NCBI GenBank assembly: GCA_037903355.1
Contig: JBAJFE010000042.1
Coordinates: 2,926,001 to 2,990,000, forward strand
Direction: 5' to 3'
Source: Trichuris trichiura
Lineage: Eukaryota > Nematoda > Enoplea > Trichinellida > Trichuridae
Length of the DNA: 64,000 bases
The notes below the pieces were generated by a model. The model worked only from the letters and a program-made list of their open reading frames with translations. It was not told the origin of the DNA and did no database searches. Shown here one piece after another: positions 2,954 to 63,448 of this stretch; the first letter of the stretch is position 1; each line of letters begins with the position of its first letter. The translations under genes were made by a program, and so were the position numbers.

Positions 2954-5900
2954 CTGAACAAAAGCATGTCTCAGCCTTGTTGACGGCTACTACGTATGAG
3001 AAAACTCACATGTCGACTAAGGCAACGGTGATATATCTTCAGCTCAGGTTCAATGGTTCCTATTTCGTCGTCTGTTCCATCCAGATGAAAAGAGCCGTCG
3101 TTACCAGTTTCAGCTTTAGATAACGTATCGTCCTTGATCGTATCTGAAAATGCAAACTGATTTTCCAATGATATTTTTTAAAAAAGCTGAATTTCTTGGG
3201 TTTAACCTAACTGAGGATAAGACAGAGATTTTCCCGGAACTTTAGTATGCTAAGATGTTCCAGTAACTCTGAAAGCTCCTCAGTCAACAGCAATGAAGTA
3301 TTTTTTAATACCGGCCACTTTGCTAGCCATCATCATACTACAACTTACTAAGTCTGTTATTAAAGCATGTTAACTCACTAAGTTTGTTAGTAAAGCAGTG
3401 GCTCCCAACAGGCTCCACAGTGGTTCTTGGTAGCCCAGGAAGATTGTGAAGGGCCGCCGGGAATTAGCATGTGAGCGGGCTGTGAAAGTTTCTGAATGGT
3501 AAGTGAGGATATGGAACGCGTTGGAGAGTTTCAGTGGGTTCATATAGATTGGGGACAAGTAAAGTCACTTCCTTCGTTTCTATAACGTTTTAGCAAAAAC
3601 CTCTCCATGATCCAAGACCCTGTTTTGTCAAACTTTGTGACGATGTTCTCACCAAATTATTACTGGACTGAATAAATAGTTGTTAGCAGATTGGTTACTG
3701 GGCATATCTGCGGTGCTCTTTAGAATTTGAATACTAGTAAAGACAAGTTGCAAGAACGTTGTTCGAATGTCATGGGCAGTGCTGTAACTGCTGTTGATGG
3801 CTGCGAATTATGAAACAGTTCAGTCGCTTGCTGCTGCTCTATCGTTAGAAGACTTGGTAGAGAATGGTTGTTCACAGATGCTAGGATGAAAGTTGAACAT
3901 TCGGTAATGCAGGACAGTTTCCCCTTTTCGCAACGACAGGGAACCGTTTGGAAGAAGCCAAAAGCTCCTATCTGCCGAAGCTCCTGGCACGTTTTATGTC
4001 CTCCCATTACTAGTTACTACGTTTTCCCTATAATAAGGGTGGGTCTCAAATTTATTTTCTCTTCAAAAAACATGGTAGGGCTTATTTTCCCGAGTGTCTT
4101 ATATTTTCAGGTACCACATTCTACACTTGTTCATTTATCTACGTGCAGAAGCTCATACAAAACGCAAATACAAAGGGAATAACGCAACTAGGGCTTATTC
4201 TCAAGGTAGGACTTATACTAAAGAGCGTCCTAAAAGTAATGCTACGGCTTACTTTCAGGAGAGGTCTTATCATAAGGGGAACACGGTAATATGAATAGAA
4301 AACGAGGTTTTTCCCACTGAAAGAGAGCTCTTGTGGCGATAGATGGAGCTCATGTTTGTTAGATTGGTTGTCAGTTTGATATTTCGGTGACGGCGTGGAT
4401 TAAACGCCTATTGAGTACTAAGCGTTCGCTTCTTACTATTGATAATGGTAAACGTAAGTAACCTAAGCCTGAATAAAAACTGGAAAACGGCGATGGGAGG
4501 CAACTACAGTACAGATAAGCACTACTGTGCGGAAACTTTTCCCTAGTTACTACTAGTAAATGTAGACAATCTAAGCGTAAACCAAAACCGGATGACAATT
4601 TGGTCTATGCAACTACAAACTACTAAGCAAAATCCCAAATATGGGTGGCAGGGAAACCGTTCTGAACCTCGTAAACTGTCGACGTAAAATGCAGTACAAA
4701 TCATTAAAACGATTTTTGCAAAACGATGACAAGCAATTACAAGTGTATATCCCAAACGTTATGAGCACAAAGGCGTAGCAGCGTGCTAACCAGATTAAGC
4801 CAGCGCTCCGCTTGAGAATCATTGCCTTAAGCCATAGATTGTCAAAGTGGGCGACATCGCCCCCTTGGGGGCAATGAGAGAGCACAGGGGGCGATGGGAA
4901 CCTCGTGCGGGGGCGTTGGGATTCGTATAAGAGGAACTCTGACAGAATTATCCCTAGCGCAGGAGGGCCCTCAAACAGACCTTCGTAAGAAGGGTCTTTC
5001 TTAACTCGCCCTCACCAGAAGTAGCACGGCAATTTCAAAGGAGGTCAAGTGGGGATGGAGAGCGCATTGGAACAATGGCGTTTTTCTTAGCTCAACTCTG
5101 GCAGAAGTGGAGGTGGCAAATTCAAAAGCATTATGGGTCAAGAGGCGGCAAGTTATGGACTGCTGTAGAAAACTTTCCTATTGCGTTTCAATCGTCTTAT
5201 CTAGCGGAATGCGGATTGAGCGCGGTTACGGAGCTGTTAAGTAGCAAGAGAAGTCGACTGGATATAGTGAATCGAGGTGACCTTAGACTGATGGTGACTA
5301 AGATGCAGCCAAACATAGACAACTTGCTCGTACTGCATCAAGTACACCCGTCACATTGAGTAGTTTCCGTTCATGTACAGTCGCAAACTTGCGTTATAGT
5401 TTCTTTTGTATCTTTTCACTTAAGCGTTTTCACTTCAATCTGGTTTGTTGTCACTACAGTTCTGTTTGGTGTGGGTAAAAAAACAAATAGACGCACATGG
5501 ATTGCTTTTTTTCCGGAAAGGGTAAAGAATGCTTCTTGCTTATGTGACTTTATGATCTGAAAAATGCGAAAGGAGATATGAAAGGCAAGCAGAAATTTTA
5601 CCATTATAAAATGGCTGGTGGAAAAACAAGTGGTGTGGTACGTCTGCTACGTGACGAAGAGTAAGTCTTTTCTGCAAAATTTTCTCTTGAGTAATGGAAT
5701 TGAAGATGTGATCTGTTGGTACGGTACAGTATGTTTTCATAATGAAACAGCTTTATTACGGAGAGAGTCCCGTTTAACGTGCGATAAAATCTTGAACTCC
5801 GGAGCTTTCGGGTCACTCAAGACCCGTCTTCAGCGGTCTTAAATTATGAATATAATTTGTGAGCGACTTCAGCCTTCTATTGTTTCTTATGGTGTAAAGC

Positions 5901-8900
5901 GGGAGTTTTAAAGTTTTCTGTTGGTGGTCTTTTTTTCTTCTTTCTTTATTTGTGTCGTTCAGCTGTCTTCTTCTCGTGTTTCGTATAGCTAGTAGTGTTT
6001 TGTGTTTGCATGGCAGAAGACTGAAGTCGCTCACAAATTATATTCATAATTTACGATCGCTGAAGACGGGTCTCGAGTGACCCAAAAGCTCCGGAGTTCA
6101 AGATTTTATCGCACGTTAAACGGGACTCTCTCCGTAATAAAGCTGTTTCATTATGAAAACATACTGTACCGTACCAACAGATCACATCTTCAATTCCATT
6201 ACTCAAGAGAAAATTTTGCAGAAAAGACTTACTTTTCGTCACGTAGCAGACGTACCACACCACTTGTTTTTCCACCAGCCATTTTATAATGGTAAAATTT
6301 CTGCTTGCCTTTCATATCTCCTTTCGCATTTTTCAGATCATAAAGTCACATAAGCAAGAAGCATTCATTACCCTTTCCGGAAAAAAAGCAATCCATGTGC
6401 GTCTATTTGTTTTTTTACCCACACCAAACAGAACTGTAGTGACAACAAACCAGATTGAAGTGAAAACGCTTAAGTGAAAAGATACAAAAGAAACTATAAC
6501 GCAAGTTTGCGACTGCACATGAACGGAAACTACTCAATGTGACGGGTGTACTTGATGCAGTACGAGCAAGTTGTCTATGTTTGGCTGCATCTTAGTCACC
6601 ATCAGTCTAAGGTCACCTCGATTCACTATATCCAGTCGACTTCTCTTGCTACTTAACAGCTCCGTAACCGCGCTCAATCCGCATTCCGCTAGATAAGACG
6701 ATTGAAACGCAATAGGAAAGTTTTCTACAGCAGTCCATAACTTGCCGCCTCTTGACCCATAATGCTTTTGAATTTGCTACCTCCACTTCTGCCAGAGTTG
6801 AGCTAAGAAAAACGCCATTGTTCCAATGCGCTCTCCATCCCCACTTGACCTCCTTTGAAATTGCCGTGCTACTTCTGGTGAGGGCGAGTTAAGAAAGACC
6901 CTTCTTACGAAGGTCTGTTTGAGGGCCCTCCTGCGCTAGGGATAATTCTGTCAGAGTTCCTCTTATACGAATCCCAACGCCCCCGCACGAGGTTCCCATC
7001 GCCCCCTGTGCTCTCTCATTGCCCCCAAGGGGGCGATATCGCTCACTTTGAGAACCTATAGATTAGTGAGAGAAAAGAAGAATGATTAAAGCCCGTTTCT
7101 TTTAAAACGGACGGGTTAGCGTCTTTTATTTGTTCGTTCTCGCTCAGTTGCTGCCTCGTCGCCGTCAGGGTAGGTCGGCTGGGAGCTCGCTCTGACGTCT
7201 GACTGACTAGGTGGGGCCAAAGCTCGACGGCTCACGATAGAGCTGACAGCTGCGGTCCCGGCCGAAGTTGGTCGGATAGAAGGGCTTGCGACCAGGAAGA
7301 GCGGCCTGACGGCGGACACTGTTCACGCTGAAGGGCGGGTCAAGGTAGGATCCGAAAGCTTCGTAGGGAATGTTTATAGCAGCGAAAAACGTTATGTGAA
7401 AAAATGGGTTAAAATCGTAAAAACGTTTTTCAATATGAAGAAAAGAGAAAATGGAAAAAAGAAAAAAGAGAAAAGAGGAAAAGAGAAAAAAGGAAAAAGA
7501 AGAAATATTGAGGGCTGCTTCGTAACACCCTGCTTTCAATGATGGGGTAGAAAGACCGGTCCATAAGAAGCAGACATTTCGACCATGGTGCCTGGTAAAT
7601 TGAGAATAGCGCTGAGCCGTTTTTCATTAAACTACAGGCTGTACCCCATTCGGCGCTGGCATTCTCGCCCGCAGAAATCCTACTACGTTGGCGTCTGAAT
7701 TCCCGACTGGATGATTTGCATCAGGACTTGCAGACGTTCGCGACACAAGAAATGGGAGCTATAAGTTTAGCAGGAACGGACAAGCAGAAGGCCTGAATAT
7801 CCAAGAGGTGCGACACTTCGGTCCTGCGACTTTCAGGCATGTTCGCCAGCTAAGTCGACGGCCCGGTTGACACAAGACGTCACTTCTCCACGGTCGTGTT
7901 GGGTCGAGCTTCTTCAACAGGTCCTATGCTCGCGTCGATCAGTCAACGGTCCAGGGATAATGGTGAAACAACAGAGATAGAAAGACCTCAGGCAGAAACC
8001 AAAGGCAGTCAACATAGATATTCCTGAGAAGGAACCGGAAGTTAGGTTGCAAAAGCGTTTTAGTGAAGACAAGGAATCCGGAGTTCCTTGTTCTCTTCCA
8101 ACGCAGCGTCACCAGAAGCAAAAATGGCCAGCCTTGAAAGAAGAACCGGTGCGGAATCATCGTCCGCCAGGACACTTTTATGACTGCAGTAGAATTAGAC
8201 ACTGTCATTAAGTGCTATCGTTTAGTACAAACGGCTGTTGCCCATTGTAAAACCAGTCGCTTCCATTCAGCACGTTCTTAGCCGCAAGGCTGTCTTTGGC
8301 GAACAGCACAGAGAACCGGATTCCAAAGAGGTTACGGTACGGTTCTGAGGGCACGTAGGTGGACGTTGAGCGGTGAGAGTTGTTTCCTGTGTTATCAGAC
8401 ATTTCATTAGAATAAACGTTTACGTGGGACTTCTTAGTTCCCATATCGGCACCCAATTCCAACGCGACAGTCATCAGGGGCAGACGTAATCTAGTCAGCT
8501 TGCCAGACAACTTGACCCACTTGGAACATAACCAGAACATTTCCACCTCGTCGACCCCAGTCTAAGCCGCAGCTTCTCCCATTTCAGTTAACCGTATGCT
8601 GAAGACGGAACTAAGTTGACCCTGAAAGCTACGGAACCCAAATTCTTTCCACTTACTGTGCTGCGCACAGCAGGACATGTCCATGAAAAGAGTTCTTCAA
8701 GAAACCATTGCCTGTTACTGAGTCACATCTTCAAGGCTACAACTAAGGCTGTCACATCGGGATTCGTCACCATGTCTGTGCTTTCTTCCTCAAACATAAT
8801 TTATGACATGAGAAATTTACTGCTTCCCTAACCTTTGTGAACTCAAGAAGAATGACGAAACACATGATGACGAGGATTTTGTCTATTGCAACATTCGAAG

Positions 8901-11900
8901 ATGCAGTACACAGACATGCGTGAAAGATATGGATGCTGGCCATGAAGCATGTTTGGATCCGCTTTTGTTCATTGGTAAAACAAAGAGGTCTTTGCTATAA
9001 GACTTGAGTTTTAAGCCAACGCTGAGTTGAAGCTTAGACTTGAGAACGATAACTATGATTCCTGGTTGTAGCATCAAATTGGTGATCCATATCTCCGGCT
9101 TTGGAACGTCTATGGAAAGTCTCGTTCACACTTTCTATTCTTTTTTGGTTGAGCGTAGACCCAGTGCCAGAACAAGTCTTTTAGCAAAGAAAAGTTACAG
9201 GCTACAAATAGCCCATCGCGGCGATTTTAGATTGCTGCTCACTAATATCGAATTAGACGTGAAAAACTGGCGCTACTGCATTCATTGCGCTACCATGAAC
9301 TAGTTACTGTTGTGTCTACAAGTAATATTAAATTTAAATATGACGTTATGGAATTCGAAGAACTTAAATTCAAGCTCATTAATGTATTACGATGTCGTAC
9401 TTGAAGATGGAATTCTTTAATAACAGGAACTTGGTTTCAGAGTCTAGGGTTTGTTGTAGCACTGTCTTGTTGAGGAGTTGCTACGAAGTGAACGAAAAGC
9501 TTTTCAAACGTACAAGAAATAAACGTAAGCTATGAAGCTGACATTCTCCGCGCATCAGCATGTTGTTAAAGGCCTCTACAAGCAAACTAACAACGGAGCA
9601 AGGTAGTCACGAGATTTACTGCCGTATATTTACCGCCTGCGTTAACGGTGATTCTTACAATCGCTTATATAATGGATGCATCGTCGACTGACAAGATTTT
9701 TATGTAACCGAGTGCGCCATTCAGGTTGGCACCAGAAAAGAAACGAGAAGGCTACACCCTTGTTTACTCGTTCTTCTGCTTCAGGAGTTGGCTTTATTTC
9801 AGAACCACACCCTGGTTTTACTCAACTTAAAGGGCGACTAAAAGTGGCTCAAAGCAATTAAAGAGAATAGCCCACAAAACGCAGCGAGGATACATTCACT
9901 CTACCGTAAATGCAGTTACAGTCAGAAGACAGCAGGTACAACGCAGCAATAAGGGACGCTGACGCTAGTACAGTTTTGATATTCGAGCGGTGAAGTGATG
10001 TGCTTTTGCAGTGAAATCATATTCTCCAAATTCTGGTAACAAGCAGGTAATAGCTACGTTTGCTCGTTTCAAAAACATTCGGTCTTCTCCGGAACTGCCC
10101 GCAAACATACGGTAACCAGAGAGGTAATCAGGGTAACGCAGGTTTGTCATACTGTGAATTAAAAACGTTGTGACTCACACAGTAAAAAGCAAAATTAACA
10201 CGTTTCTCTCGCCGAGCAGCCTTTGTTTCCTTTATATAAACGTTGTTGGTAATGCTAGGGCCATTTACAAGGCTTGTACTCCAGAGTTAGTTACACCTGA
10301 AAACTTTTATTCAGCTAATTTTTCCCTTAACCTAGCCTGTCTTCCTTTTCCACGCTTACGGAGATCTGAGTCTAAACATGGGATAAACACTGCACGAGTA
10401 GAATATAGTTAAGATTTGACAGCGGTTGAAATACTTGTACAGCATAATCTGGTGTACGTCAGGCTTGCATTGAGCTACTTGAAGTAACTTTTCCGTTAAC
10501 CTTGCTAACTTGCTTTTTTCTACTCAACAAGCTTGAATCTACAGACAGGATGGAAGCTGTACGAATGGGCTAAGAATTGAGATTCACTTTACGTAACGTC
10601 GCGTAATTTTAAAACAAAAATGGTCAAGGTAGCACCCGCGCTAGCCGTTACTTGCGTATATCTGTCATAGCTCAGGCGTATAGCACAAGCGAAATTTAAA
10701 CTTTGCCTTGCATAAAATCGCACAAATAGGCTATATAATTGCACTTCATATGCGATCGGAGAGTTAACTATCCCTCGTCAGTGGGCCTTCTCACATATCC
10801 ATCGACGGAAACAAAGGAAACAGCAATTTTATTTACAAGGCGACGACCAGCATTTACATAATACAATTCTATTTACAACTGTATGCAGAAAGGAGGTCAC
10901 ACAGGCGCCCAGTAAGTCGCTACGTCACCCAAGATTTTGTCACCACCGCACAGTTTTTGTTCAGTTCTATAAGATCAGTACTAGAATTATTCGCACCGAA
11001 AGATGGAGCAATGCTGATATTCACTTTTTTGGAGCAAAATTTTGACGTCCGATAATTACTGCTCCACAAGTGCATGAATGTAATGACTTTTCTAAGGTCC
11101 GTGTTGGAACCTGTAAATGATGTATTAAAATGCAAGGCCATATGTTTGCAGTAGCCCTACGTTGCTTTCACGAGATGTGCGCTTCTTTCAGGCCATCTGT
11201 TAAAAGAAATAGCCTCCGTGCACGTTCGAAAGATGCTCTTTGCAGTTTTTGTGTTGTTCTTTGTCAAAGATGGAAATATTGTGCAATTAGCGCTGTAAGC
11301 GAGCAGTTGCCGTGTTCAGATGAACTTCAATATCCTGTACTTCTACCACTGAGCAGTGCTCTTGAAAACAGGATGCTTCGTAACGGGATGATATTTCATG
11401 GAATGGTAGATCTTCTACAGCTTTTCCCGTTTTGCCTGCGGTAGTCTCTGTAGATAAACGAAACAACTGCTCTACCAACGGATGGATGAGCGATTATTAA
11501 GAAAACTTTTACAGAACCAATAAACTCAACTTTATTTCACAGCTTTCGGAATGCTCTAGTTCCGAAAACTCTGAAACATCCGCAGCATCTATCCGGTCCG
11601 TAGATTCCGGCTTCTTGAGTATAAAAAAGCAAAGCAGCAAGGTTAAGGGAAAAGTAACTTCAAGTGGCTCAATGCAAGCCTCGCGTACACCACATTATGC
11701 TGTAAAAGTATTTCAACCGCTAACGAACCTTAACTATACTGTATTCGTGCTATGTTTATCCGATGTTTAGACTCAGATCTCCGTATTACTTAGACGACGG
11801 AACTAGAGCGTTCCGAAAGCTCTGAAATAAAGTTGAGTGTATTGGTTCTGTACAATTTTTCTTAATAATTGCTCATCCATCCGTTGACAGAGCAGTTGTT

Positions 11901-14900
11901 TCGTTTCATTACAGGGACCACGACAGACAAAAACGGGAAAAGCCGCAGATTTACCATGCCGTTAAGCAGTGCTGACGAACATTTTTTCTCTCTTCACAAT
12001 CGGTTCGGAGATGAAGGCACAGCTATACGATTTCTTCAAGAAAAAAAATCCCCCACCAACAAAGACTTTCTGCGAAAAGGCATTCTATGAACCTGAGCTC
12101 TTCATTCCAGGCTGTGGAATCAAGAACTCAGGTTTATAGAATGTCCCTTCCCCTCATGTCGACAAGACTCTCTTCTCCTCGAGGAAGTCTCACAGTGGCA
12201 GGGAGTACCCAAGGCAATGGGTTTCCGTGGGCTTATGCCGAGAAATCAGGGAATCCTTCTTTGTGCCCGTTGCGCGCCGTAGTAGGCGGACGTTGATACT
12301 GCTGATAAGACAGTACATTAGGCCCGGCACTACGATCGTTACTGACTGCTGGCGAGGGTACCACAGTCTGTCTCAGGAGGATTACGCTCACCTGAGAGTG
12401 AATCACTCCATAAACTTCATGCACCCTGTGACGGGGGCGCACACACAGACTGTGGGACGCTTCTGAGCATAAGTGAATCGGTCAAACAACCTCCGGTGCA
12501 GCATGCGCCTTAGCGAGCTGGACTTGTACCTGTGCCAGTTCATGTGAAGCGGCATGCTGCGTCCCAATGAAGATTCATCTGACAAAATCTCGGGTAACAC
12601 AGTCACTTGCTGGACGTCTGTATGACCCCCGTTCTGAGTACAATTGTAAATAGAACTATATTATGTAATTACCGTTCGTCGCCTTGTAAGTAGAATTGCT
12701 GTTTTTGTTTCCGGCGACGGGCGTGCGATATGGTATACTGGCGGCGGATGGTTAACTCACCGATAGAATGTGAAGTGTAATTATATAGCACATTTGTGTG
12801 ATTTTATGCAAGGCGAAGTTTAAGTGCGGCTTGTGCTGTACGCCTGAGCTATGGCAGATATACGCAAGTAACGGCTAGCGCGGGTGCTACCTTGACCATT
12901 TTTGTTTAAAAATTACGCTACTTAACGTAAAGCGAAGCTTAATTCTAACCCCATCCGTGCAGCTTCCATCCCGTCTGTAAATTCAAGCGTGTTGAGTAGA
13001 AAAACGCAAATTAGCAAGGTTAACGGAAAAGTTACTTCAAGTAGCTCAATGCAAGCCTCACGTACACCAGATTATGCTGTACAAGTATTTCAACCGCTAT
13101 CAAATCTTAACTTTATTCTATTCGTGCAGTGTTTATCCCATGTTTAGACTCAGATCTCCGTAAGCGTGGAAAAGGAAGACAGGCTAGGTTAAGGGAAAAA
13201 TTAGTTCAAGTAGCAGAATAAAAGTTTTCAGGTGTAACTAACTCTGGAGTACAAGCCTTGTAAATGGCATTACCAACAACGTTTATGTAAAGGAAACAAT
13301 GGCTGCTCTGGGAGAGAAACGTGTTACTTTCGTTTTCTACTGTATGAGCCACAAAGTTTTTAACCTACAGTATGACAAAGCTGCCGCTCCTTGTTTACCT
13401 CCCTAAATTGCAGTATGTCGCTGGAAATTTGTTTACTTACGGCATGATATTACCTGCGTTTCCTTGTTTATCACTCTGCATTACCGTATGCTTGCCGGCA
13501 GATTCCGGACAAAACCCAAAATATTTTTCTGTTACTTCATACCCACTGCTCAACAGGACAATGCCGTAAAACCCATAGATCATTTTGTCCGTCCTAATAT
13601 GGCGACAAAAACCACGGAAACAGGGAGTCCCTGTTCGCATCTTTAACGGGGCATTACACTACTTTGGGAGGTTTGTTCCTAGTGCTTCTTAAAGTTTTAG
13701 AGGGCTAACCGAGACTGCTACTAATATGAACAGGGACCTTTCTTCATAGTTGGTCTTCTGGTTCACGGGTTTGGCTTGTTTGATGTATCTGTAAGTAAAC
13801 TTCAAAGTGCCCTACCAATGAATGGATGAGCAAATTGTTAGAGAAATTACAGAACAATTCGGGTGCCGTACGTTTCGGAACTCCTCTTGTTCCGTCCTTA
13901 CACTGCTGACAACGGACTTACGTCATGGATTCATGAAATTTTTCATCATAGAATAATTATTTATTCCAAAAAGACTGAAGCATTTTGGAATGCATTTGGT
14001 CCCATTATCAACGGAGTCAGAAAATGTCTTAAGGAGGTGAGATGTCTTACCACGAAAGGGAGTTCGTAGCATAAAAAACTGTCTTCAGCATGAGAGACTT
14101 CTTGCTAGCCTCCTAACCGCCCATAGAGGAAATTGACATGAATGTTATATGGCCAAAGAAGTTGTTCAGTATGCACAGGCCTTACATTCAGCAGTTAAAG
14201 ATGTAATCCTAATTCAGCCCAAAAGACTGGGAACGCTTGTGAAGAAAGTACGACGGATGCCTAAAAACTCATGAGTGAATTTCAGTGTGTTAGTTTAGCA
14301 TTGATTTTGTTTTGGCCAAACGCGACAGCTCCTCTTCTTTCTGTAAGTTCTCATCCGTTTATCCAAAACTTATTCCAAGAACGACATGTCAAACGTACTC
14401 TAGATAAAGTACAGAAAGGCCAGAAGGAGAATAAAGGCGGCAAGGAAGAACGACGATGGGAAATACCGGGAAGATGAGAACTCCGAAAGAAGCCCTGGCC
14501 CAGAGAAGCTTGGGAACTCTAGTTTAAACTAGTAAAGCATGAGAATTTGAATCTTACATAGTCGTGTTAATAGAATTAAGTATAATATATCAAAAAGTAA
14601 ACATAAATGCTCGTCGCTCGAAGCAAGCAAAGCAAAATTTATAAAACTGGAACTCAAATATCTTTGTTGTTGTGGCGTGTGGCGGAGCGAAATGAGCAAA
14701 AGATGCACAGTTCCACAGCAAGATCAGCAGAAACAGTAACTATTCATAATCAGCGATGCCTACCTCTTTCGATGAGTTTAACCGTGACTTTACTGGCCGG
14801 CTTGTCTCCGCAAACTAGTTTCCCCTTCACCTGCACTCTTTGCTTTCGTCCGAATGCACCAGAAATAAGCAATGTAACCCACAACAGGAAAAAAGATTTA

Positions 14901-16588: not shown

Positions 16589-17093
16589 GACGAAGCGTAC
16601 CCGTTGAATCAGACGGAGACATATAGACCCATAATGGCATACCAGAACTTCACTGAGACCACGAACTACGCAACAGACTTCTACAGAACACTACCCCTGG
16701 CCCAGGCTTGCTTGAAAGGAGATAAAAAATTTGCGGTCGGTTTAATTGCTCGAGGAGTTTGAGATCGGTTACTAAAAGGTATGATGCACTAACGAGTGCA
16801 GTAAAGGTATGATGTTTCTGCCGAAGCGAAGCTTAAAGCGCGCGGGTTTCCAGTCAGCAACAGGTTGACGCGACGTGGCTGGCTGCTTCTTTTCTTAACG
16901 GTTTTAAGTTTTCTTGAGCATCAATCTTGCTGCGAATACTTGTTTGCTCAAATGTGGCAGAAGCAGTCGTGACAACTGGCTACAGTTGCACGTCCCTACC
17001 GAAGTCACATTCCTGCCGTTATTCTTTGTTGGTAAACGGATTGTTCCTGTCAGGCGGCAAAAAGCGATGAAGAGATAAGCGAATGCGATGAAA

Positions 17094-17132
17094 CTAGAGG
17101 TTTCGGAACACTACTGTTTCCATCTTCAGTGG
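17094..17132 (-). ncRNA. Hammerhead-like core
   Basis: Minus strand: CTGAAGA, stem II GGAAAC/GTGTTCC, GAAA, CCT, C. The core blocks are intact, but stem III (ACCU) and stem I pair poorly. It has T, not C, as the extra base before stem II. Confidence 0.45.
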
Positions 17133-17267
17133 TATAGCATAGGCCTATTCACCACCACTGAGGTCGGAAATAATAGCCTTAACTTTTCTCTCGAAAACTC
17201 TTCTTAACGAGTCCGTAGATTTTCATAGTAAAGTGATTTATTAAATAGTTAGCCTGTTCATTACTCA

Positions 17268-17400: not shown

Positions 17401-17741
17401 ATGAATGCTGAACGGGTTAATGGTAAAATAAAATATTTTACTATGAAAACCTGCAAAAGTAGTTACAACGGGGAAGCTCCTTGAAAAATGGAAACTCTGG
17501 AAAGTTGAGATCATTCCCTTGTATTTATAGTATGATTCAGGCGGAGCAACCTTAAAATGACAAGCTATTTAAAGTTTAAAACGCTCTAATTCAGAATGTG
17601 GATGTTAAGGTTTGTGAAGGTTGCGTGCAGACGTTCAAAGTGGAGCTCAATGCTAATACTTGGAAAACAGGAAAACGGTGGTACAGCAATTGAATGTTTA
17701 TACCGAGGAGTTTCACTCATGGATATACGTGATTCTGGTAT

Positions 17742-22262: not shown

Positions 22263-22537
22263 AATCTTGAACACGGGGTGTTTCTTAACGGGGCAATGGA
22301 TTTTCATCTCTACTTCATACGGTATGTATTCTTGCCCGTTGATGAATTGAATTGAATTACCACCATCGCTGACGACGGGACAAGGTTAGTCCCGAAAGCT
22401 CCGAACTGTTTAAGTACTTGTTCTGTATTTTTCCTTAATAATTGCTCATCCATCCGTTGGTAGGGCATTTGCTTCAGTTTAATTTCAGAACCCATCAACG
22501 GGCAAGAATACATACCGTATGAAGTAGAGATGACAAT
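22263..22537 (+). mobile_element. Hammerhead-bearing palindromic element in an LTR
   Basis: A 275-bp insert flanked by ACGGCAAAAC (22253-22262 and 22538-22547). Arms of about 40 bp (near 22300-22345 and 22494-22533) are inverted repeats; the hammerhead core lies between them. The left end extends as the tail module on the minus strand (MKIHCPVKKHPVFK). The right arm stops a few bases past its ATG. Confidence 0.88.
22367..22403 (+). ncRNA. Hammerhead-ribozyme-like core (intact core blocks)
   Basis: Stem I CG, CTGACGA, extra C, stem II GGGAC/GTCCC with a 7-nt loop, GAA, stem III AGCT, cleavage C, then CG closing stem I. This is one of the best matches in the window and sits in a demonstrably mobile insert. 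Confidence 0.75.
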
Positions 22538-26885: not shown

Positions 26886-26964
26886 TTATATGTTAGAATT
26901 TCTATGCCTCTTCATACTACAACGTGTTTCCGTACAAAGAATATCCAAAACTTTTAATGCAGTT

Positions 26965-27001
26965 CCACAGCTTTCGGGCAGCGCGTGACCATCCTTAGCG
27001 G
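26965..27001 (-). ncRNA. Degenerate hammerhead-like core, left arm
   Basis: CTAAGGA replaces CTGANGA, while the GAAA and AGCT blocks are kept. Not expected to be active. Confidence 0.45.
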
Positions 27002-27696
27002 TATTAAAATTGATGTAATCAATGATCGCTTAGTCGCCATTCAGTCAGTTTTAACGGTTTAAAGCCTAAGCCGGTTTCATTCTCGACAACCAAAAGTCTA
27101 ATGCCATGAAAGTACCGTACGCCTACGAAGAATTAAAGAAGCCCTTTATATTAGACATTATGTGCTACACAATCGGGACCAAGGGGCAGAAATTAGTGAA
27201 CTTTGGACAAACATTGTTACGCGCTCCAGTTGCTGCTCACTAAACTGATTTCGTATACGAACGCTTGGAACAAGTGAAGAAATAGATTAACGTACAAATA
27301 AAACTATAGAACTACACACGCAGACCACCAAATATGGAAATATAAAAGAAAAATGGATAAATTTACATAGAACAATGAACAAACATGAAGCTGATTACCA
27401 CATATGGATCAAAATAAAAAAAGGATGAATCTGCATTGCACACGGACTTAACATTAAACGAATTAACATATAGAACACAAAATAAGAAATAGGTGTAACA
27501 AACGTGAAATAACAATGGAAAAAATTCGAAAAATAAATTAACAGGTATACAGTAAGATGATACAATATACACAAAACAAGAAACGCAGTCAGCTGACAGA
27601 CGAGAAAACTTCAAAAAACAAGACTTTAAAACACATTTTAAACCGTTAAAACCGACTGAATGGCGACTTCGTACTTGCTAATTACAATTTTAATAC

Positions 27697-27732
27697 CGCT
27701 AAGGACGGGTCACGCAGGACCCAAAAGCTACG
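27697..27732 (+). ncRNA. Degenerate hammerhead-like core, right arm
   Basis: CTAAGGA, good stem II (GGGTC/GACCC), AAAA in place of GAAA, then AGCT, A and CG. Not expected to be active. Confidence 0.45.
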
Positions 27733-27992
27733 AAACTTCATTTAAGTTTCGTATTTTCAACTGGACCTGGTCCTTACGAAAACAATTCAAACATGAAAAT
27801 CTATGGTCCCGTTCCAAAAGTTATACCTTCAAAGCCTCTTCATACTGTATCATTTTTACGTGAAGACTAATGATTGTACTGCTGTGTGGGCCTGTCCGCA
27901 TATGTCGCGCGTTATGTCGTGTCCTGTTGAGTCTCTAGCAAAGCGGTCTACGAATCCTCATCAAGTGGTAGCAGAGCGCCCTGTTAGGTGCA

Positions 27993-40164: not shown

Positions 40165-40322
40165 GTCGAAGTTGTGTTTCACAAAAGAAATGAAATTGTA
40201 CTCTATCTCATGAATAGAAGAGATGTACATGGATTTTCCCGTTTTGCATTTGCCCATAAAACGAGTGAAAAAGTGAAAAAGCTTTAATGTCGTTCAAGGG
40301 CATAAAACCAAACAAAGGTCTG

Positions 40323-40360
40323 GCGAAGCTTTCGGCTCAATCTTGAGCCGTCATCAGCGC
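40323..40360 (-). ncRNA. Hammerhead-ribozyme-like core (intact core blocks)
   Basis: Stem I GCG, CTGATGA, extra C, stem II GGCTC/GAGCC, GAA, stem III AGCT, cleavage U, then CGC closing stem I with three pairs. Every core position is conserved. Confidence 0.78.
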
Positions 40361-40968
40361 ACGCAGGAGTTGCCCACCCACCGAGTTTTTCCTTAGGAGT
40401 AGCTCCTCCACCTTTCCGAGTCGTGTGCGTGCCTGTCTAGTTGAACTTTGACCTGTCGAGGCTATACACACACGGCTGGATCAGCTTCGGAGCAACTTCC
40501 TTACAGGCTGTCCTCGGCGGAGGCACAACGCGCAATAGGATGACTCGTTTTATGGGCAAATGCAAAACGGGAAAATCCATGTACATCTCTTCTATGACAA
40601 CCAAACCCGTTACAGACCACACACCTGTATATCTGAAAACTACGCTCACATGGTGCGCTGAAAACATCACTCGGAAAACACCGGATTGGACAATGGAGAA
40701 AGCCCTAGACGTGGACAAACGGCCCTCGCCGTAACATCGGCAGGTTGACCTATTCTGACAGGACGCCTCACCTAACGTTGACTGACCATCCTATTGCGCG
40801 TTGTGCCTCCGCCGAGGACAGCCTGTAAGGAAGTTGCTCCGAAGCTGATCCAGCCGTGTGTGTATAGCCTCGACAGGTCAAGGTTCGACTGGACAGGCAC
40901 GCACACGACTCGGAAAGGTGGAGGAGCTACTCCTGAGGAAAAACTCGGTGGGAGGGCAACTCCTGCGT

Positions 40969-41006
40969 GCGCTGACGACGGCTCAAGATTGAGCCGAAAG
41001 CTTCGC
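40969..41006 (+). ncRNA. Hammerhead-ribozyme-like core (intact core blocks)
   Basis: Same as the core at 40323 but on the other arm, with position 7 changed from T to C (CTGACGA). Position 7 is the one variable position in the hammerhead core, so the substitution is of the tolerated kind. Confidence 0.78.
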
Positions 41007-42570
41007 CAGACTTTTGTTTGGTTTTATGCCCTTGAACGACATTAAAGCTTTTTCACTTTTTTTACTGGTTTTATGGGCAAATGCAAAACGGGAAAATCCA
41101 TGTACATCTCTTCTATGACAACCAAACCCGTTACAGACCACACACCTGTATATCTATCTCACGAAATCGTAATTCCAAGCATGTCAGTAATCTGACAAGA
41201 GGAAATGAGTTTCCATTGAGCAACATCGGTAGCATGGATGAGACGGCAGTTTTTCGATATGATTGGGAATAAACCGTCGGCAGTAAAGGCACAAAGTCTA
41301 TTGTAGTGAAGAGCACTGGGCATGAAAGAACTCATTTCACGGTGGTGCTGTCCTGCCTGGCTAATGCAATGAAGGTTGAGCCTGCGGTCGTATTTAAGAG
41401 GAAAAGGAGGCCAAAGGAGGATTTTCCTTCTGGCGCTTTTGTGCACTTTCATGAGAACGGCTGGATGGATGAACAGGGCGTGAGACTGTGGATTGACAAA
41501 ATCAGGAGAAAAAGGCCTGGGCATAGTAACAGCAGAAGCTTACTTGGTGTGGGATTCATTCTGAAGTCACGTAGCTGAAACAATAAAAAGAGATTTAAAG
41601 AAATGTAAAATAGGAACAGCCATAATTCTCGGTGGGCTTACATCAGTTCCGCAATCGTTGGACGTTTGCATTAATAAATCCTTCAAAGACTACAAGCGAG
41701 AAGAGTAAAAAGAATGGATGGCAAAAGAGGGAAAGAGTTACACAGCCGGCGGATGATTGCGAGCTTCATCGCCCAATTTGCCGTGCCAGTTCGTAATAAA
41801 AGCATGGAGCAAAGTAAAGACGGAAACCGTTACGAAGTGTTTTCGAAAGTGCTCCATTTCTACCCTGTTGGGCGACACAGAAGACGATGAACCGCCAGAC
41901 AGTGACGAAGACCATTCTTAGCTTGACCGTTTTGTCACTGCAATTAATGTTTTCCGCGTCAGGCACCATGTTTGTCCGCTTCTAAAATCTATTCATCCGT
42001 GTTTTACGTGCAACAGTCGTAATAGGCGTTCAATAAACCTTTTCAATACGATTCATTTGTCATAGCCTACGCAGTGCTGTACGACACGCGCTAATCGGCA
42101 GCTGATCAGTTTTCGCGTTGAAGCTGAGGCAAGACAGTTTCAATTGAATGGACGATTTGCATTCACTGAAAACTGACCAATCAAAATTGACCTAGACTTG
42201 AGCAATCAGCGTCGCCGTAACTGGGCCAGTCATAACCACCGATTGCTTAGGTAGGCGATTGTTCTTATAGGCCGTCATATACGGTAACTCGATTCCATTC
42301 CCACTCATACGCGATTTTACCGGCTGGAAATGGCAGACGTATGAATAATTCAATGTTTTCATGCATGGAAAGCAAAGACAGACCGAACTCTGATCTTATG
42401 CCCGTTTTTCGGCCACGCGCAAGCAGCGCATTGATTCTACTGCGACAAAAACGCTTATGATTCGTGCCACAAGCTATAACCTCGGAATAGCCGTTGAAAA
42501 TATCGTAGAATCATGGAATGACGCACCGAAACAGCGCAAACACCGCGTTTAGCGGGAGGCTATCCCAGAT

Positions 42571-43346: not shown

Positions 43347-43644
43347 TCGAAAGACAGGATGTCTTTTAACAGGGTTGAGTTGTTTCATGGTTGATCTTCG
43401 GTTTACGGATTTGGCCTGTTCGATGTGTCTGTAAGTAAACTTCAAAATGCCCTATCAGCGAATTTTGGACTGATGCTCCCTTACACTGCTGACCACGGAA
43501 CAAGAGCAGTTCTGAAACGTACGGTATACAATTGTTCTGCATTTTGCTCTAACAATCTGCTCATCCATTCACTGGAATGGCATTTTGAAGTTTACTTACA
43601 GACACGTCAAACTGGTCAAATCTGTTAACCAAAGATCAACCATG
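43347..43644. mobile_element. Hammerhead-bearing palindromic element
   Basis: 298 bp, flanked by AGATTAGATATA (43335-43346) and AGATTACATATA (43645-43656), 11 of 12 identical. Arms of about 85 bp (43386-43470 and 43563-43644) are inverted. The left end carries the tail on the minus strand (MKQLNPVKRHPVF). The right arm stops exactly at ATG. The core between the arms is degenerate. Confidence 0.85.
43487..43523 (+). ncRNA. Degenerate hammerhead-like core
   Basis: CTGACCA (G8 changed to C), stem II GGAAC/GTTCT, GAAA, ACGT arrangement, A, CGG. The G8 change should abolish activity. Confidence 0.5.
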
Positions 43645-45458: not shown

Positions 45459-46811
45459 CGGTAATCGTTGCTATACTAAAATTACCCGCGAAAATTTCAT
45501 AAGGCACAATGCTCTCCATGTGTGCTTTTCTATCAATATATGAATGTCAAGAGCAAATTCAAAGTTAAACAGAAAGATCAGAACAAAAGCTAAACACGTG
45601 AAACGCAAACACAGTCGAATCGTTTCGAAAATAACAATCTCATTATTTCAACTAAAAAACTATTGGACACATTTAACAAAAAAAATCCCACACAAGCTTT
45701 CCCAGCAATTATACAAACTATGATAAAAACGACTGAAGATTAAAGAAGTATAAATTAAGTTGTGGTGCTCAAGTTCAAGTACTTAAAATGTGATACAAGT
45801 AAGGTATTTCTGCCTTCTAGCATGGAATCTCAGCTCTAAATCTCACTAAAGGGAAAAATATATAATACCCTCATTGTATTTTCTGGCAATAACAACAGGG
45901 AACATTTCACTTGCGAACGATCATCTTGCCGGAGCGTTCACGTTTCCGCGCGGCGTCCTGTAGATAGGGAAGGAATGCATACCTTCGGCACCTGCTGTAT
46001 CGCCGCCAGCCATACCCATTAGTTAAACAACACTAAGCTATTATTTTCGCATTCTATGGTCACATTCTATGGTCGGCAACTCCCTCTTATGCTTCTGTTT
46101 AGCTATGCTGCACGAACACAGCCATGTTCCATGCTCGTGTGCCATAGCTATTTCTTGACCAAAGGTGAGATGTCAAGGGAAAGGGACTCTAGAGCATGAA
46201 AATAATAGTTTGCTGTTGTTTAACTAAAGAATACAGTTGGCGTCAAAATGACAAAGAGGCAGCTGGCATTTCTCTTGGTCTTTTCGTTGCTTCATGGCTT
46301 CAGTTTAAGCATAAATGTCAGTGAACTGGGATTACTGCTGACAACCAGCAACATGCAGCTACGTCGAAATTAAACAACCTGATCGACTAGCGCTTGGGCT
46401 CTTTCGAACCGCCAGGGAGCACCTGCCGACAGCCTCTCATAAGAATACAAACCGTTGAGTTTACCCATTCTGTTTTACGCTGAAGACGAAACGTGTGGAG
46501 TTTAGAAAGCTCCGTTATTTCATTATGTTTGGGTAACTTTTTACCATCCAACATTTTTAGAAAAACAATCCGGTTTTGCCGCACCCTTTATTACTGCCAT
46601 ACCATATTTCATAACTAGAAACAAAATTCTAGGAAACAATAGGATCACGACAGACAGTGCGCAGGTTTAACGGTCTTAGGCTGATTTTCAGTAGTTGAAT
46701 TCATACATTTCTTGTAATCGTGTTTGTTACTTTAATATAGCTCACAGGATGCTATCTATTCAATTCTCATAAAGCTTCTACTGCGGTTCTTTCCCTGTCT
46801 CCAGAGCAAGG
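45459..46811. other. Upstream of DENR; no gene recognised
   Basis: Promoter side of DENR. It contains AT-rich sequence and open frames of 60-70 codons without motifs (for example 46387-46584 minus). Confidence 0.3.
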
Positions 46812-49416: not shown

Positions 49417-50985
49417 TCACGGGTCACCAAATGTAGCGGATCCGAACAGACGAACTACAGCGCAACTTTTACTCGCACAATCTTCACACACACTAACTTA
49501 AAAATACCGTATTCCGTCCAAGATCCACAGGTCAACGTATGATACGATATTTTGTCGCTCCGCTACAAAGGTATTACAGATGATAAGATTAGGCGTTAGC
49601 ATCAGTCCAAAGTAAGCCCTGAGAACTTCGCAATGAAAAATTTGTACAGATTGAGCATGTAGGATCTATTAAACAACGATTTTAAAACGTTAGAAAAATG
49701 AAACTCTTGTTGCGCTTCGTACCTGCGCATCATTGCAGATGGAACAGACACGTTGCCTTAGTTGCTAGTGTTTACAAAGCTGGTGTTTTAACGCGGCGAT
49801 GTTGCAGTAGCATTCAGTATAGGTCTATCGGCTGACTGAGCTAGCTCGTAACAACCGATTGCTAATATGGACGGCGAAGGAGGCGGTTTTGATCCTTGCG
49901 AATGCGTGTTCAGTCACGAAGCGGCCATGAGCCGCCTTCTTAGCTTGGTATGCCGCTGAAGCTTATTCTTACTGGAGTGCAGTAAGTCTAACGTAAGCTT
50001 TGATTTACAGCTGCGCAGCACTCAAACAGACTGCACTGAAAACGAATGTTTCCGCGGTTGGTTACATGTTATACTTTTCCTTTGAAAATCCGTTTTAATT
50101 ATTCAAGGTAACGATGGCACGCCAAGCTCACTGTTTGGTGACGGATCTACGGTTGGGATGATGTTGCTCTGGTTCGCCCTGGCCGTAGTTCTGTTCTTGT
50201 CAAGACCAGCGTCCTTACGTCACTCTGGAGATGGCAAGCCTTCGCGCGCTGATGAGGTCAGTATTACCAAGCTATCGAGATCGATCTTGCTCCTGATCAG
50301 AATGTCTGCACTGTTGCTTACTTGTAAACTCGGGTTTGGTGTGATTCCTTTAACAGAACATCGCCAAGCCACAAGTTTGGATTCGTGAATGTAAGTGAAC
50401 CTTTTTAGGGACCAAGCGGACCTCCTCCGGCGCCGCTTTTGTAAGACAAAGCACATCACCTTCATTCTCTACATGGTCGAGAAAGTGTGGCCTATCTTCT
50501 AACCTTTATTCGGTGGGCAGAACTTGGGGAGCTTAAACTGTTTTAGCAGCGTGGTGATCAGAAATCCAAAGTTTGCTTTACTTTTTCTCGCGTGTTACCT
50601 GCTTTGCTTATCTCGCAGAAAAAGTAAAATGTGCCTTTTCCGTAAAGTTAGGAAGTGCTTTCTAATGTCATCCGTTTGTGTTTTTGTGCTAACCTATATT
50701 TATTCGCGACAGCCTTTGTTCACTGTAACTTGTGACGTAGGAACGATGAGCAGGCGTTACTTTAGAATGGAGCGGTAACAATTTAATGACCTATTGTGTT
50801 GAAGCAGGTGAGCTGAGTTATTTCGGTTGCTGGATGGTACTTTATTTAATTTGCTGTGTTTTGCTTGAAGATTGAGCTTTGGTAACAGAAGCTTAGTTAC
50901 ATGATATCGATTGCGGCTTTGTCCTCTTTAGCGATCGGTACGATGTAAAAGTAACTAACTTTTTAATCGTGCGCCAACTAGAAAA

Positions 50986-51024
50986 ACGGAACTTTCGGGA
51001 CTGACTTTGTCCCGCCGTCAGCGT
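50986..51024 (-). ncRNA. Hammerhead-like core (one core change)
   Basis: Stem I ACG, CTGACGG (A9 to G), stem II GGGAC/GTCCC, GAA, AGTT, C, CGT. Three stem I pairs remain, but the A9 change makes activity unlikely. Confidence 0.55.
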
Positions 51025-51698
51025 GGCGGTGAGATTCCTTTGCCAGCTTTATTGCATTGTAAACGGAGATTCCTATTCTATGTTTAATTCTCGCATACCG
51101 CAGTGGCTTCATTATAATTGAAATCACGCTTGATCCGTTCATTTACGTAAAGACTTAAAAACCAAACGTTTGAAATAACTTATCCGTATCAAGTGACAGG
51201 CATTCTGTTCAATGAGAGTGGTAAGCTTAAGCCGTATTTTCATGCTTAAAGTTCCGGTAAATTCCCATGTAATCAGCACCTCAACTAAAGCAAGCATGAA
51301 AATGTACGAAACCGTGAAATAATTCCTATGTTCACGAGAACAGTTCTAGCAAGCTTTCAACCGTCACCTACGCTGAAACATTTGCACAATGTAAATAGCA
51401 GTAGCAGCTATTTTAATCTGATCGTGGAGGTTGGTTCTGCTTTCATTTTGATCTTTCCGCGGCTTGCTCTCGTTCTTTGTAAGCACATTAGAATCTCCGT
51501 ATATGCATGTGGTGCATTCCAGCGGACAGTGCGGATAATGGCAACCACTTGGGAACGCGTGCATTGTTTGACTTTAATATAGATACAGGCGTACCTTGAA
51601 GATGTGATGCTTTTGTACGGGACTATGTTTTCATGTTTAACTGTCTTTATTACGGATCTACTGTCCCGTTGATACGAACAATAAACGAAAACTTTCCT

Positions 51699-51736
51699 CC
51701 GGAACTTTCGGGTCTGTCGCGACCCGTCGTCAGCGG
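51699..51736 (-). ncRNA. Hammerhead-ribozyme-like core (intact core blocks)
   Basis: Stem I CCG, CTGACGA, extra C, stem II GGGTC/GACCC, GAA, stem III AGTT, cleavage C, CGG. Three stem I pairs. Downstream on the minus strand lie leader sequence and a degraded tail (MKT then a stop). Confidence 0.72.
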
Positions 51737-52036
51737 TCAAGATGTGTGTCAACACACACACACATCTTGGCGATTTCCCCCCCCCCTGCAAATGGGGCAC
51801 ATGCCCCACCGTGAGAATCACTGATGTAGAACATGCTAATAGTCAGCCGAGCGTTCAGTAACTGGTAATATTTTTGCTGGTGTGGGTTTGTGCTTCGAAG
51901 TTGGTGGTTGCTCAAGGTTCCTAGCTGTAACTGTTGAAACATTTCGTCACTGATGCAATTCAGTTAAATAAGGCAACAATGAAGTTTAACGCTTCGACCG
52001 ACTCTTTCTTTCACGAAGAACTCTGCAGCATGCAAT

Positions 52037-57399: not shown

Positions 57400-57798
57400 C
57401 TTCTTTTTGTACGGATTTTTATGTCCCGTTGAAAAAACTTTTATTACTAAAATGTCCGGAGCTTTCGGGTCATTCGAGGCCCGTCATCAGCGGTCTTAAT
57501 TTGTAAATATGATTTTTGGCAGCGAATGCCATCTATCCTTTCCGAAGATTTTAAAGCGGGCATTTTTAAAGTTTTCCGTTGGTAGGTTCTTGCATTTGAG
57601 TCTGTCAGCGCAATTCTTTTTCTTGTTCCGTATGGCTTCTAGATTTTGTCTTCGTTGGTTGTTTCGAGCATTTTTTTTGTTGTTGAATCGCTGTTTTTCC
57701 ATATTGCATTCATTTTTCTTCTTCTTTCAACTGGACATAAAAATCCGTACAAAAGGAAGCAACCAAATGAAATTATACGGTCCCGTACGAAGACACTA
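57400..57798. mobile_element. Hammerhead-bearing palindromic element
   Basis: 399 bp, flanked by TATTAATTTCGTTG (57386-57399 and 57799-57812), a perfect 14-bp duplication. Short arms (GTACGGATTTTTATGTCC near 57410; GGACATAAAAATCCGTAC near 57733) are inverted. The right end carries the tail (MKLYGPVRRHY on the plus strand). The left arm stops about 20 nt before its ATG. Confidence 0.88.
57456..57493 (-). ncRNA. Hammerhead-ribozyme-like core (intact core blocks)
   Basis: Stem I CCG, CTGATGA, extra C, stem II GGGCC/GACCC (one mismatch), GAA, stem III AGCT, cleavage C, CGG. Confidence 0.72.
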
Positions 57799-58539: not shown

Positions 58540-58745
58540 CTTCGGCTTATTTGGTTTGTCTGTAAGCAAACTTGCTCCTTTGTATTGCTGACGACGGAAC
58601 AAGAGCAGTACAGAAACGCACGATTACGTTGCTCTGTGTTTTCTCCAACAATCTCTTCATCCATTCGTTGGTAGAGCATTTTGAAATTTATTTACAGACA
58701 AGCTGAATGGGCCAAAGCCGTGAATAGAAGATCAGTTTTGACAGC
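58540..58745. mobile_element. Hammerhead element, subfamily of 43347, boundaries unclear
   Basis: Inverted TTTGTCTGTAAGCAAACTT (near 58553) and TTTATTTACAGACAAGCT (near 58690), with the shared CTCTTCATCCATTCGTTGG stretch between. A core at 58586-58623 has CTGACGA but a disordered GAAA side (AGAAACGCACG). I did not find a convincing target duplication. Confidence 0.6.
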
Positions 58746-62430: not shown

Positions 62431-62553
62431 TGTTAGACGCTGCACCGACTTTCCGGGAACTTTCTGAACATCCATTCTTATCTTTTTCCTAGAGTTTTGA
62501 GACTTTTCTATCTTTTTACCCGCTGTTACCATTAATACAATGTACCTAATGAT

Positions 62554-62971: not shown

Positions 62972-63407
62972 CTATAGACGATTGGGTTCAGAAAGATCTG
63001 TAGCTGGTGATTGAAAATGTATGAATTGCGACATGAAAGTGACGGTAGCACAAATCTATCAGGCAGCGGAAACAATTCCGTCCCAGTAAATCTGCCAAAT
63101 GGCCGTCGGTTAAATGTCCCGTGGTCAAATAGTGGCGGCTAAGTGTCCTGACCCTGCCCAGGATTTCCAAGAGTGAAAACGCAGGCTCGCATCAAGTACG
63201 GTCAGTTTTCAGTTACGCACTTTGTCCTAATTGACACATCGCGATTGTAGCGAAGCGCAATAAAACAGTGTATGTACATGTTATTACATTGAGAAAGAGC
63301 TATGCCTGTAGATATTAATAAATTGCATTGAAAACGAAGTTCTTTCTTAAAGATGCTTGAAAATTCATAGTAATTGAAGGAAGTGAAACCCGCCAAACTT
63401 TATTTTT
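62972..63407. other. No recognisable gene
   Basis: Nothing supported beyond short frames. Confidence 0.3.
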
Positions 63408-63448
63408 CGCGAAGATTTCAGAGAACATCCGTTTCCGTCTTCAGCGCG
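63408..63448 (-). ncRNA. Hammerhead-like core
   Basis: Stem I CGCG, CTGAAGA, extra C, imperfect stem II, GAA, ATCT, U, CGCG closing stem I with four pairs, the longest stem I here. Stem II is mismatched (GGAAAC/GTTCTC), so function is doubtful. Confidence 0.5.

What the first reader, a model, noticed from the sequence alone, without database searches (positions are those of the whole stretch)
5799..63448. A dispersed family of minimal hammerhead-ribozyme-like motifs, about 19 in 64 kb
Seen directly: the same motif recurs at 5799, 6058, 8596, 11539, 11787, 13866, 17094, 22367, 26965, 27697, 40323, 40969, 43487, 45120 (half), 50986, 51699, 57456, 58586 and 63408. The pattern is short stem I, CTGANGA, a hairpin, GAAA continuing into a 4-nt palindromic stem III (AGCT, ACGT or AGTT), one unpaired nucleotide, then the other strand of stem I (CCG/CGG, CG/CG, GCG/CGC). 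The only freely varying core base is position 7 (A, C or T), exactly the variable position of the hammerhead core, and stem II arms covary between copies (GGGTC/GACCC, GGGAC/GTCCC, GGCTC/GAGCC). Known: minimal hammerheads with a very short stem III occur in pLTRs of Penelope-like elements and tend to work as dimers. Inference: this lineage carries an unreported nematode set. An oddity is the extra pyrimidine between CTGANGA and stem II in every copy.
Basis: partly seen in the sequence, partly recalled or inferred. Interest (0 to 1): 0.92.

Follow-up and report, generated by a model that had tools for sequence, protein, structure and literature searches.

The report
Hammerhead ribozymes in whipworm Penelope elements
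A whipworm-like worm genome carries thousands of tiny RNA motifs shaped like the self-cutting hammerhead ribozyme, and those that could be traced are end pieces of a known kind of jumping gene (Penelope-like elements), here with an almost constant extra base in the ribozyme core whose role can now be tested.

Summary
Stems I (3 bp) and II (5 bp) covary across 20 flank groups, some of them related. N7 varies; position 17 is G in 0 of 100 listed copies and 1 of 21 groups. One strict pattern gives 3,250 hits genome-wide, reversed control 0.

Where traced, they are pseudo-LTR pieces of Penelope-like retrotransposons (PLEs): 11 of 12 fetched GIY-YIG loci carry the motif, and 4 of 10 ORF-start stretches have a sense copy upstream. 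Head-to-head pairs are common and inserted as a unit, with one long tail each in 7 of 7 pairs and clear target duplications in about four. The host is Trichuris-like.

Minimal PLE hammerheads are published, so this is a new member of a known kind. The extra base before stem II is about 98% pyrimidine, mostly C; C there is reported as detrimental in a viroid ribozyme. No Rfam hammerhead model matched in the window or six loci. Self-cleavage is inferred, not shown.

The parts
5796..5839 (-). hammerhead-like motif (HHR); inverted partner of 6054
   Evidence: R1 57.0 bits, E 1.7e-13
6054..6097 (+). HHR; G12 replaced by A
   Evidence: R1 49.6 bits, E 2e-11; sequence
7322..7367 (+).
   Evidence: R1 33.1 bits, E 7.2e-7
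8593..8637 (+). degenerate HHR
   Evidence: R1 20.8 bits, E 0.0018
11534..11568 (-). degenerate HHR, inverted partner of 11783
   Evidence: R1 19.1 bits, E 0.0054
11783..11828 (+). HHR, 5' side of core decayed
   Evidence: R1 38.2 bits, E 2.7e-8
13869..13896 (-). partial HHR (model positions 12-39)
   Evidence: R1 19.7 bits, E 0.0035
17091..17135 (-). HHR with extra T and stem III ACCT
   Evidence: R1 38.8 bits, E 1.9e-8
22363..22407 (+). HHR, intact core; inverted arms 22300-22344/22493-22537 flank it
   Evidence: R1 59.3 bits, E 4e-14; arms
26962..27004 (-). degenerate HHR, inverted partner of 27693
   Evidence: R1 21.2 bits, E 0.0014
27090..27278 (+). remnant of the C-terminus of the PLE protein, between the two inverted HHRs
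   Evidence: tblastn to P0001, 65% identity, E 5e-20
27693..27736 (+). HHR with mutated core, downstream of the PLE remnant
   Evidence: R1 34.3 bits, E 3.3e-7
40320..40363 (-). HHR, intact core, inverted partner of 40966
   Evidence: R1 52.9 bits, E 2.3e-12; arms of 275 nt
40966..41009 (+). HHR, intact core
   Evidence: R1 52.8 bits, E 2.6e-12
43483..43527 (+). HHR with ACGT stem III
   Evidence: R1 35.0 bits, E 2.1e-7
46474..46518 (+).
   Evidence: R1 32.2 bits, E 1.3e-6
50983..51027 (-). HHR, AGTT stem III
   Evidence: R1 33.1 bits, E 7.1e-7
51696..51739 (-). HHR, intact core, AGTT stem III
   Evidence: R1 50.5 bits, E 1.1e-11
57453..57496 (-). HHR, intact core
   Evidence: R1 51.3 bits, E 6.4e-12
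58582..58626 (+). degenerate HHR
   Evidence: R1 20.6 bits, E 0.0021
63406..63450 (-). HHR, stem III ATCT
   Evidence: R1 31.5 bits, E 2e-6
596..621 (-). weak HHR remnant downstream of a PLE C-terminal remnant at 787-647(-)
   Evidence: R1 E 0.74, not significant; tblastn to P0007 and others

Best explanation
The motifs are minimal type I hammerhead ribozymes built into the pseudo-LTR of Penelope-like retrotransposons of a whipworm-like nematode. Pieced together from different copies, an element reads: pLTR with a sense HHR, start codon about 43-54 nt after the predicted cut, RT + GIY-YIG ORF, 3' UTR, second sense HHR, 3' end. No single copy was seen whole with both. Shown: structure, covariation, position in the element, head-to-head pairs inserted as a unit with one long tail each. 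Inferred: HHRs in a readthrough or multimeric transcript pair through the self-complementary stem III and cut after position 17, releasing element-length RNA; the RT-EN protein then primes reverse transcription on both nicked target strands, giving inverted, variably 5'-truncated copies that scatter HHRs over the genome. Window copies with mutated cores are probably dead relics.
For: Stems I and II: 95.6% of cells paired against 77.6% shuffled, 0/500. N7 free; position 17 C 58, A 24, T 18, G 0 of 100; stem III AGCT 84 and ACGT 12 of 100. RVT_1 + GIY-YIG in two open frames of 854 and 865 aa. HHR in 11 of the 12 fetched of 86 GIY-YIG matches; in 5 of 10 larger loci it flanks the ORF as an inverted pair (L046, L049, L050, L051, L052). 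Sense HHR upstream of the ORF start in 4 of 10 short stretches (L067, L070, L071, L072). Seven inverted pairs of one family, of at least eight in the list: shared flank words 14, 12, 10, 8, 5, 6 and 13, against 42 cross pairs (40 at most 8, two of 10); one long tail per pair in 7 of 7 as read. PLE relatives in Trichuris; eIF4E-like ORF 84% to T. suis. An anole PLE protein cleaves and extends both strands and its HHR cleaves when protein is added (PMC11167929: abstract, parts 1-2 of 4, section 11).
Against: No Rfam hammerhead model matches at E<=10 in the window or in six loci; genome-wide the best Hammerhead_1 hit is 26.7 bits, below its cut-off of 34, with 73 of 12,095 candidates scored. The extra base departs from the consensus core, and C there is reported as strongly detrimental in CChMVd (PMC3705267 passage). 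The predicted lowest-energy dimer pairs by other bases, not as a double hammerhead. The count of pairs with a double change (5) was reached in 111 of 500 shuffles, and flank groups are partly related. Only three TSD words exceed every cross pair, one ties. No cleavage, expression or circRNA data. In the anole PLE, HHR mutants did not change insertion in vitro. Families with stems I other than CCG/CGG were not tied to a PLE ORF; L007 had no motif.
Confidence: 0.8

Rival explanations
1. The hairpin is a DNA- or RNA-binding site of the PLE protein (endonuclease or RT loading), conserved for shape; ribozyme activity is absent or irrelevant.
For: HHR mutants of the anole PLE keep insertion activity in vitro (PMC11167929). 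The extra C is predicted to pair with G12 in the lowest-energy fold. A second conserved hairpin lies downstream.
Against: The unpaired core CTGA-GA/GAAA, the not-G rule at 17 and free N7 are hammerhead features not needed for a hairpin site.
Confidence: 0.13
2. Relics only: the HHR was active in ancestral PLEs and copies now persist by drift in dead insertions.
For: Many window copies have mutated cores; the window holds only remnants of PLE ORFs.
Against: Some PLE loci have long open frames (854 and 865 aa) with exact HHRs, and the 40 other best-scoring copies of one family are 94-98% alike to the query (40 of 1,093 candidates scored), which suggests recent movement.
Confidence: 0.25
3. Non-autonomous retrozyme-like elements using the HHR to make circular RNA.
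For: A triplet of direct copies at 475-nt spacing on C1; in the first 588 kb of C1 listed I read 3 direct pairs under 1 kb beside 4 inverted ones; several stem-I families lack a known ORF.
Against: Nine of nine pairs under 1 kb that I read in the list and four of five in the window are inverted, not direct.
Confidence: 0.1
4. Chance matches to a short pattern.
For: Loose descriptors give many spurious hits.
Against: 3,250 against 0 for the reversed control; window shuffles 0 or 1.
Confidence: 0.01

Closest known systems
Minimal type I hammerheads of Penelope-like elements (Cervera & de la Pena 2014; Lunse, Weinberg & Breaker 2017; not held, known from passages of the reviews PMC7761336 and PMC6155905)
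   Same: Hammerhead core, missing or very short stem III, no characteristic loop-loop contacts, location in pLTRs, thousands of dispersed copies, dimers proposed
   Different: Nearly universal extra pyrimidine between A9 and stem II here; 4-nt AGCT/ACGT stem III; 3-bp stem I. Whether published PLE hammerheads share these could not be read
HHR of the anole PLE PAc (PMC11167929, abstract, parts 1-2 of 4, section 11)
   Same: PLE with RT + GIY-YIG, HHR near the ORF start, two RT start sites giving copies with and without tail
   Different: There the HHR overlaps the start codon; here the ATG lies 43-54 nt after the predicted cut in three stretches. A cut 26 nt after the PAc start codon would fit the same spacing as here if that codon begins at A9, but I did not see its sequence
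CChMVd(+) viroid hammerhead (PMC3705267 passage)
   Same: One extra base between A9 and stem II
   Different: Extra A there; C or G there is strongly detrimental, U is 3-4 times faster
Bdelloid rotifer Penelope families (PMC3846280 passages)
   Same: Head-to-head inverted pLTRs, optional tail on one of them, TSDs of 8-10 bp in the passages, palindromic junctions
   Different: The word hammerhead does not occur in that paper

Membership tests
Hammerhead ribozyme, type I | Invariant core CUGA-N-GA and GAAA with free N7 | tested here: met
   2,862 exact copies with AGCT, control 0; N7 A37 C32 T30 G1 of 100
Hammerhead ribozyme, type I | Stems I and II supported by covariation | tested here: met
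   in stem I the support comes mainly from the third pair and partly the first, the second being almost invariant
Hammerhead ribozyme, type I | Stem III present | tested here: inconclusive
   Only a 4-nt self-complementary run in 96 of 100; the predicted dimer does not form the double hammerhead
Hammerhead ribozyme, type I | Position 17 is not G | tested here: met
   0 G of 100; 1 G of 21 groups
Hammerhead ribozyme, type I | No insertion between A9 and stem II | tested here: not met
   One extra pyrimidine in about 98% of copies of the strict patterns. One- or two-base insertions next to this segment are known (PMC10085705 passage; CChMVd), so this is a deviation within the family rather than an exclusion
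Hammerhead ribozyme, type I | Scores above an Rfam hammerhead cut-off (a practical, not a defining test) | tested here: not met
   one search also found none but its control rang nowhere
Hammerhead ribozyme, type I | Self-cleavage after position 17 | not testable with these tools
   needs an RNA assay
Penelope-like element | RT plus C-terminal GIY-YIG in one ORF | tested here: met
   two proteins scanned, both positive
Penelope-like element | Pseudo-LTRs, often inverted head-to-head, optional tail, variable TSD | tested here: met
   inverted pair around the ORF in 5 of 10 loci; one long tail in 7 of 7 pairs, about four clear TSDs of 7
Penelope-like element | HHR in the pLTR on both sides of the ORF | tested here: met
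   upstream in 4 of 10 stretches, downstream; seen in different copies, CCG/CGG families only
Retrozyme | Direct-repeat HHRs around a short non-coding unit, circular RNA | tested here: inconclusive
   one triplet at 475-nt spacing; circRNA not testable

The most novel reading that the evidence does not exclude
The extra pyrimidine is a latch. In the ground state it pairs with G12, the base that (from general knowledge) acts as the general base, extending stem II by one pair and keeping single ribozymes silent. Dimer formation, or binding of the PLE protein, opens the pair and fires cleavage only on multi-copy or protein-bound transcripts. This would explain why C dominates although C at that place is detrimental in a viroid ribozyme, and why the anole PLE ribozyme needs protein. 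The fold prediction shows the pair; the missing compensation between the two positions does not support it, but is a weak test.
Probability: 0.15. Interest if true: 0.68.

Novelty: new member of a known kind. Interest (0 to 1): 0.42.

Why it matters
It adds a dense nematode set (3,250 copies of one strict pattern in 72.7 Mb) tied to PLE open frames. The role of hammerheads in PLEs is described as unknown (PMC7761336 passage). The natural variants, including rare T, A and no-insert forms of the extra base, make the role of that base and of dimer or protein dependence testable with sequences that already exist. Rfam's models matched none of the copies in the window and six loci, so such sets may be missed in other genomes.

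Tried and rejected
Rejected: a cleavage-site signature at the 5' end of PLE copies. Many hits start at one base equal to the predicted cut, but the fetched neighbours show this is L044's own deletion at a chance CGGAG match. A second try scored only the 40 best of 1,093 candidates, all long, and says nothing about truncation.

Rejected: extra pyrimidine covarying with position 12. A12 is found in 131 copies with extra C, beside 2,862 with G12, and, as read, in 5 of about 100 listed with extra T: no compensation, though A12 copies are probably dead.

Rejected: longer stem I beyond an internal loop (140 of 500 permutations as good).

Led nowhere: PLE relatives in viral contigs (none), in genome contigs (two loci; no copy of the motif seen), the HHR pattern in viral contigs (none).

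Corrected on checking: 40, not 39, of 42 cross pairs have a shared word of at most 8; direct neighbours are commoner than I first wrote; the inverted pair around the ORF was seen in 5 of 10 loci, not all; I lowered the main confidence from 0.82 to 0.80 for this.
Full report
OBSERVATION. Rfam finds no hammerhead there, at gathering scores or at E<=10. To test the motif without using the window for training, I collected copies from the fetched loci and the window; the collecting script required one base between core and stem II, four stem II pairs and at most one core mismatch (84 distinct copies). Of these, 67 have an exact core and GAAA; grouped by flanking sequence with the six bases next to the core left out, they form 21 groups, one of them from the window. 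The grouping is greedy and several groups are clearly related. Stem I was not used in the selection. It pairs at positions 1-3 in 21, 18 and 20 of 21 groups (permuted means 18.9, 18.2, 11.5) and at positions 4-5 in 7 and 3 (7.4, 7.9); the sum 59 of the first three was not reached in 2,000 permutations (maximum 55). Position 2 is nearly invariant and gives no test. On the 20 non-window groups (alignment A3), stems I and II give 95.6% paired cells against 77.6% shuffled, and a covariation score of 0.569 against 0.217, 0/500 each; sliding the partner by one column drops pairing to 63% or less; the number of pairs with a double change, 5, was however reached in 111 of 500 shuffles. A model built from A3 recovers 18 of the 19 window sites at E<0.01, plus four more.

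GENOME. The window lies in a genome of 72.7 Mb in 62 contigs. The strict pattern with AGCT gives 2,862 matches, reversed control 0; with any stem III, one further base and then YG, 3,250 and 0. Among the 100 listed, stem III is AGCT 84, ACGT 12, AGTT 2, AACC 1, AACT 1; position 17 is C 58, A 24, T 18, G 0; N7 is A 37, C 32, T 30, G 1. Eight arbitrarily placed loci give 3 hits at E<0.01 in 48 kb, so a few thousand in all is a fair but rough guess.

THE EXTRA BASE. Between CTGANGA and stem II there is C in 2,862, T in 235 (position 12 G or A), A in 30. The pattern CTGANGAGG, without C, T or A, gives 31: 12 are one repeat on C60/C61, in part spaced 7.4-8.2 kb, which I guess to be rDNA; of 20 strings checked, 11 carry an extra G with a good stem and one looks like a true no-insert form. 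So about 98% are pyrimidine, within patterns that demand GG at the stem base and AGCT. [quoted passage not shown] The lowest-energy fold of one copy pairs this C with position 12. No compensation between the two positions is seen, but the test is weak. The predicted dimer of the same copy does not form the double hammerhead.

WHAT IT BELONGS TO. The genome has 86 GIY-YIG matches at E<=1, and 11 of the 12 fetched loci carry the motif (L007 does not). Of ten larger loci all carry the motif somewhere, and in five (L046, L049, L050, L051, L052) it stands as an inverted pair around PLE frames. Two open frames of 854 and 865 aa carry RVT_1 and GIY-YIG. Of ten short stretches at an ORF start, four show a sense HHR upstream (L067, L070, L071, L072); in three of them an in-frame ATG lies 43-54 nt after the predicted cut, and L070 was not matched by that ATG pattern. 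A single copy with sense HHRs on both sides was not seen whole. In one family the 41 scored copies end near the same base. Seven inverted pairs, of at least eight in that list, were tested for target duplications: longest shared flank words 14, 12, 10, 8, 5, 6 and 13; of 42 cross pairs 40 are at most 8 and two are 10. Three pairs exceed every cross pair, one ties, three do not stand out; the four longest lie at the element ends as read. As read, one end of each pair carries the long tail and the other does not, one pair having a short tail at the second end. These are PLE features: inverted head-to-head pLTRs and an optional tail are described for rotifers (PMC3846280, passages), and two RT start sites and extension of both strands for an anole PLE (PMC11167929). 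In the window, PLE C-terminal remnants lie at 787-647(-), 27090-27278(+) and 36491-36965(+); the second has an HHR downstream on the same strand, the first only a weak one at 615, the third none that I found.

HOST. The closest PLE proteins with names are from Trichuris muris and T. suis, 42-65% identity among the best hits (the 65% over 39% of the query); a window ORF resembling eIF4E is 84% identical to a T. suis protein, its only hit. A whipworm-like nematode is therefore likely; the species is not known.

CONSERVATION. Between nine representative copies (36 pairs, a few from the same family) the 38-39-nt motif is on average 78% identical, upstream flanks 57% and downstream 62%, random 50-mers 56%. 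Neighbours: nine pairs within 1 kb in the listing are, as read, all minus then plus; in the first 588 kb of C1 I read four such pairs and three same-strand pairs.

MECHANISM. Shown: structure, place, insertion unit. Inferred: cleavage, dimer use, release of unit-length RNA. The anole PLE ribozyme cleaves only with protein, and its mutants did not alter insertion in vitro (PMC11167929), so the role in the life cycle stays open.

NOVELTY. Reviews state that thousands of minimal type I hammerheads occur in many metazoan genomes and in PLE pLTRs, acting perhaps as dimers, role unknown (PMC7761336 and PMC6155905, passages). The primary papers were not held. My ten paper searches listed none whose title or abstract start concerns whipworm hammerheads; one search lists 15 of 1,578, so this is not proof that none exists. 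I file it as a new member of a known kind, with the extra pyrimidine as the open point.

Noticed in passing
window 4828-7065: A 1,051-nt inverted repeat, 99% complementary, centred on the HHR pair 5796/6054; arms reach far beyond the pLTR and include an ORF fragment that looks hAT-like to me (recalled, not searched), so a DNA-level palindrome may have formed around the insertion.
   Followed up: partly
10-90 nt downstream of the HHR in many families, e.g. window 57490(-), 51733(-): A second conserved hairpin ACGGGA...TCCGT between the HHR and the insertion end in 16 of 39 copies, 0 of 39 upstream (one copy, 17129, is counted twice); could be the RT loading site.
   Followed up: partly
G000:C1:2085522, 2085997, 2086472: Three direct HHR copies at exactly 475-nt spacing, resembling retrozyme-style tandem units.
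   Followed up: no
window 10118-13404: Nested inverted repeats (506, 203, 143, 138 nt arms and more) around the HHR pair 11534/11783.
   Followed up: no
window 17733-18386(+): Open frame resembling eIF4E, 84% identical to a Trichuris suis protein.
   Followed up: partly
L027:143-238: A strong hairpin with matches to miRNA precursor families that stay below their gathering scores.
   Followed up: no
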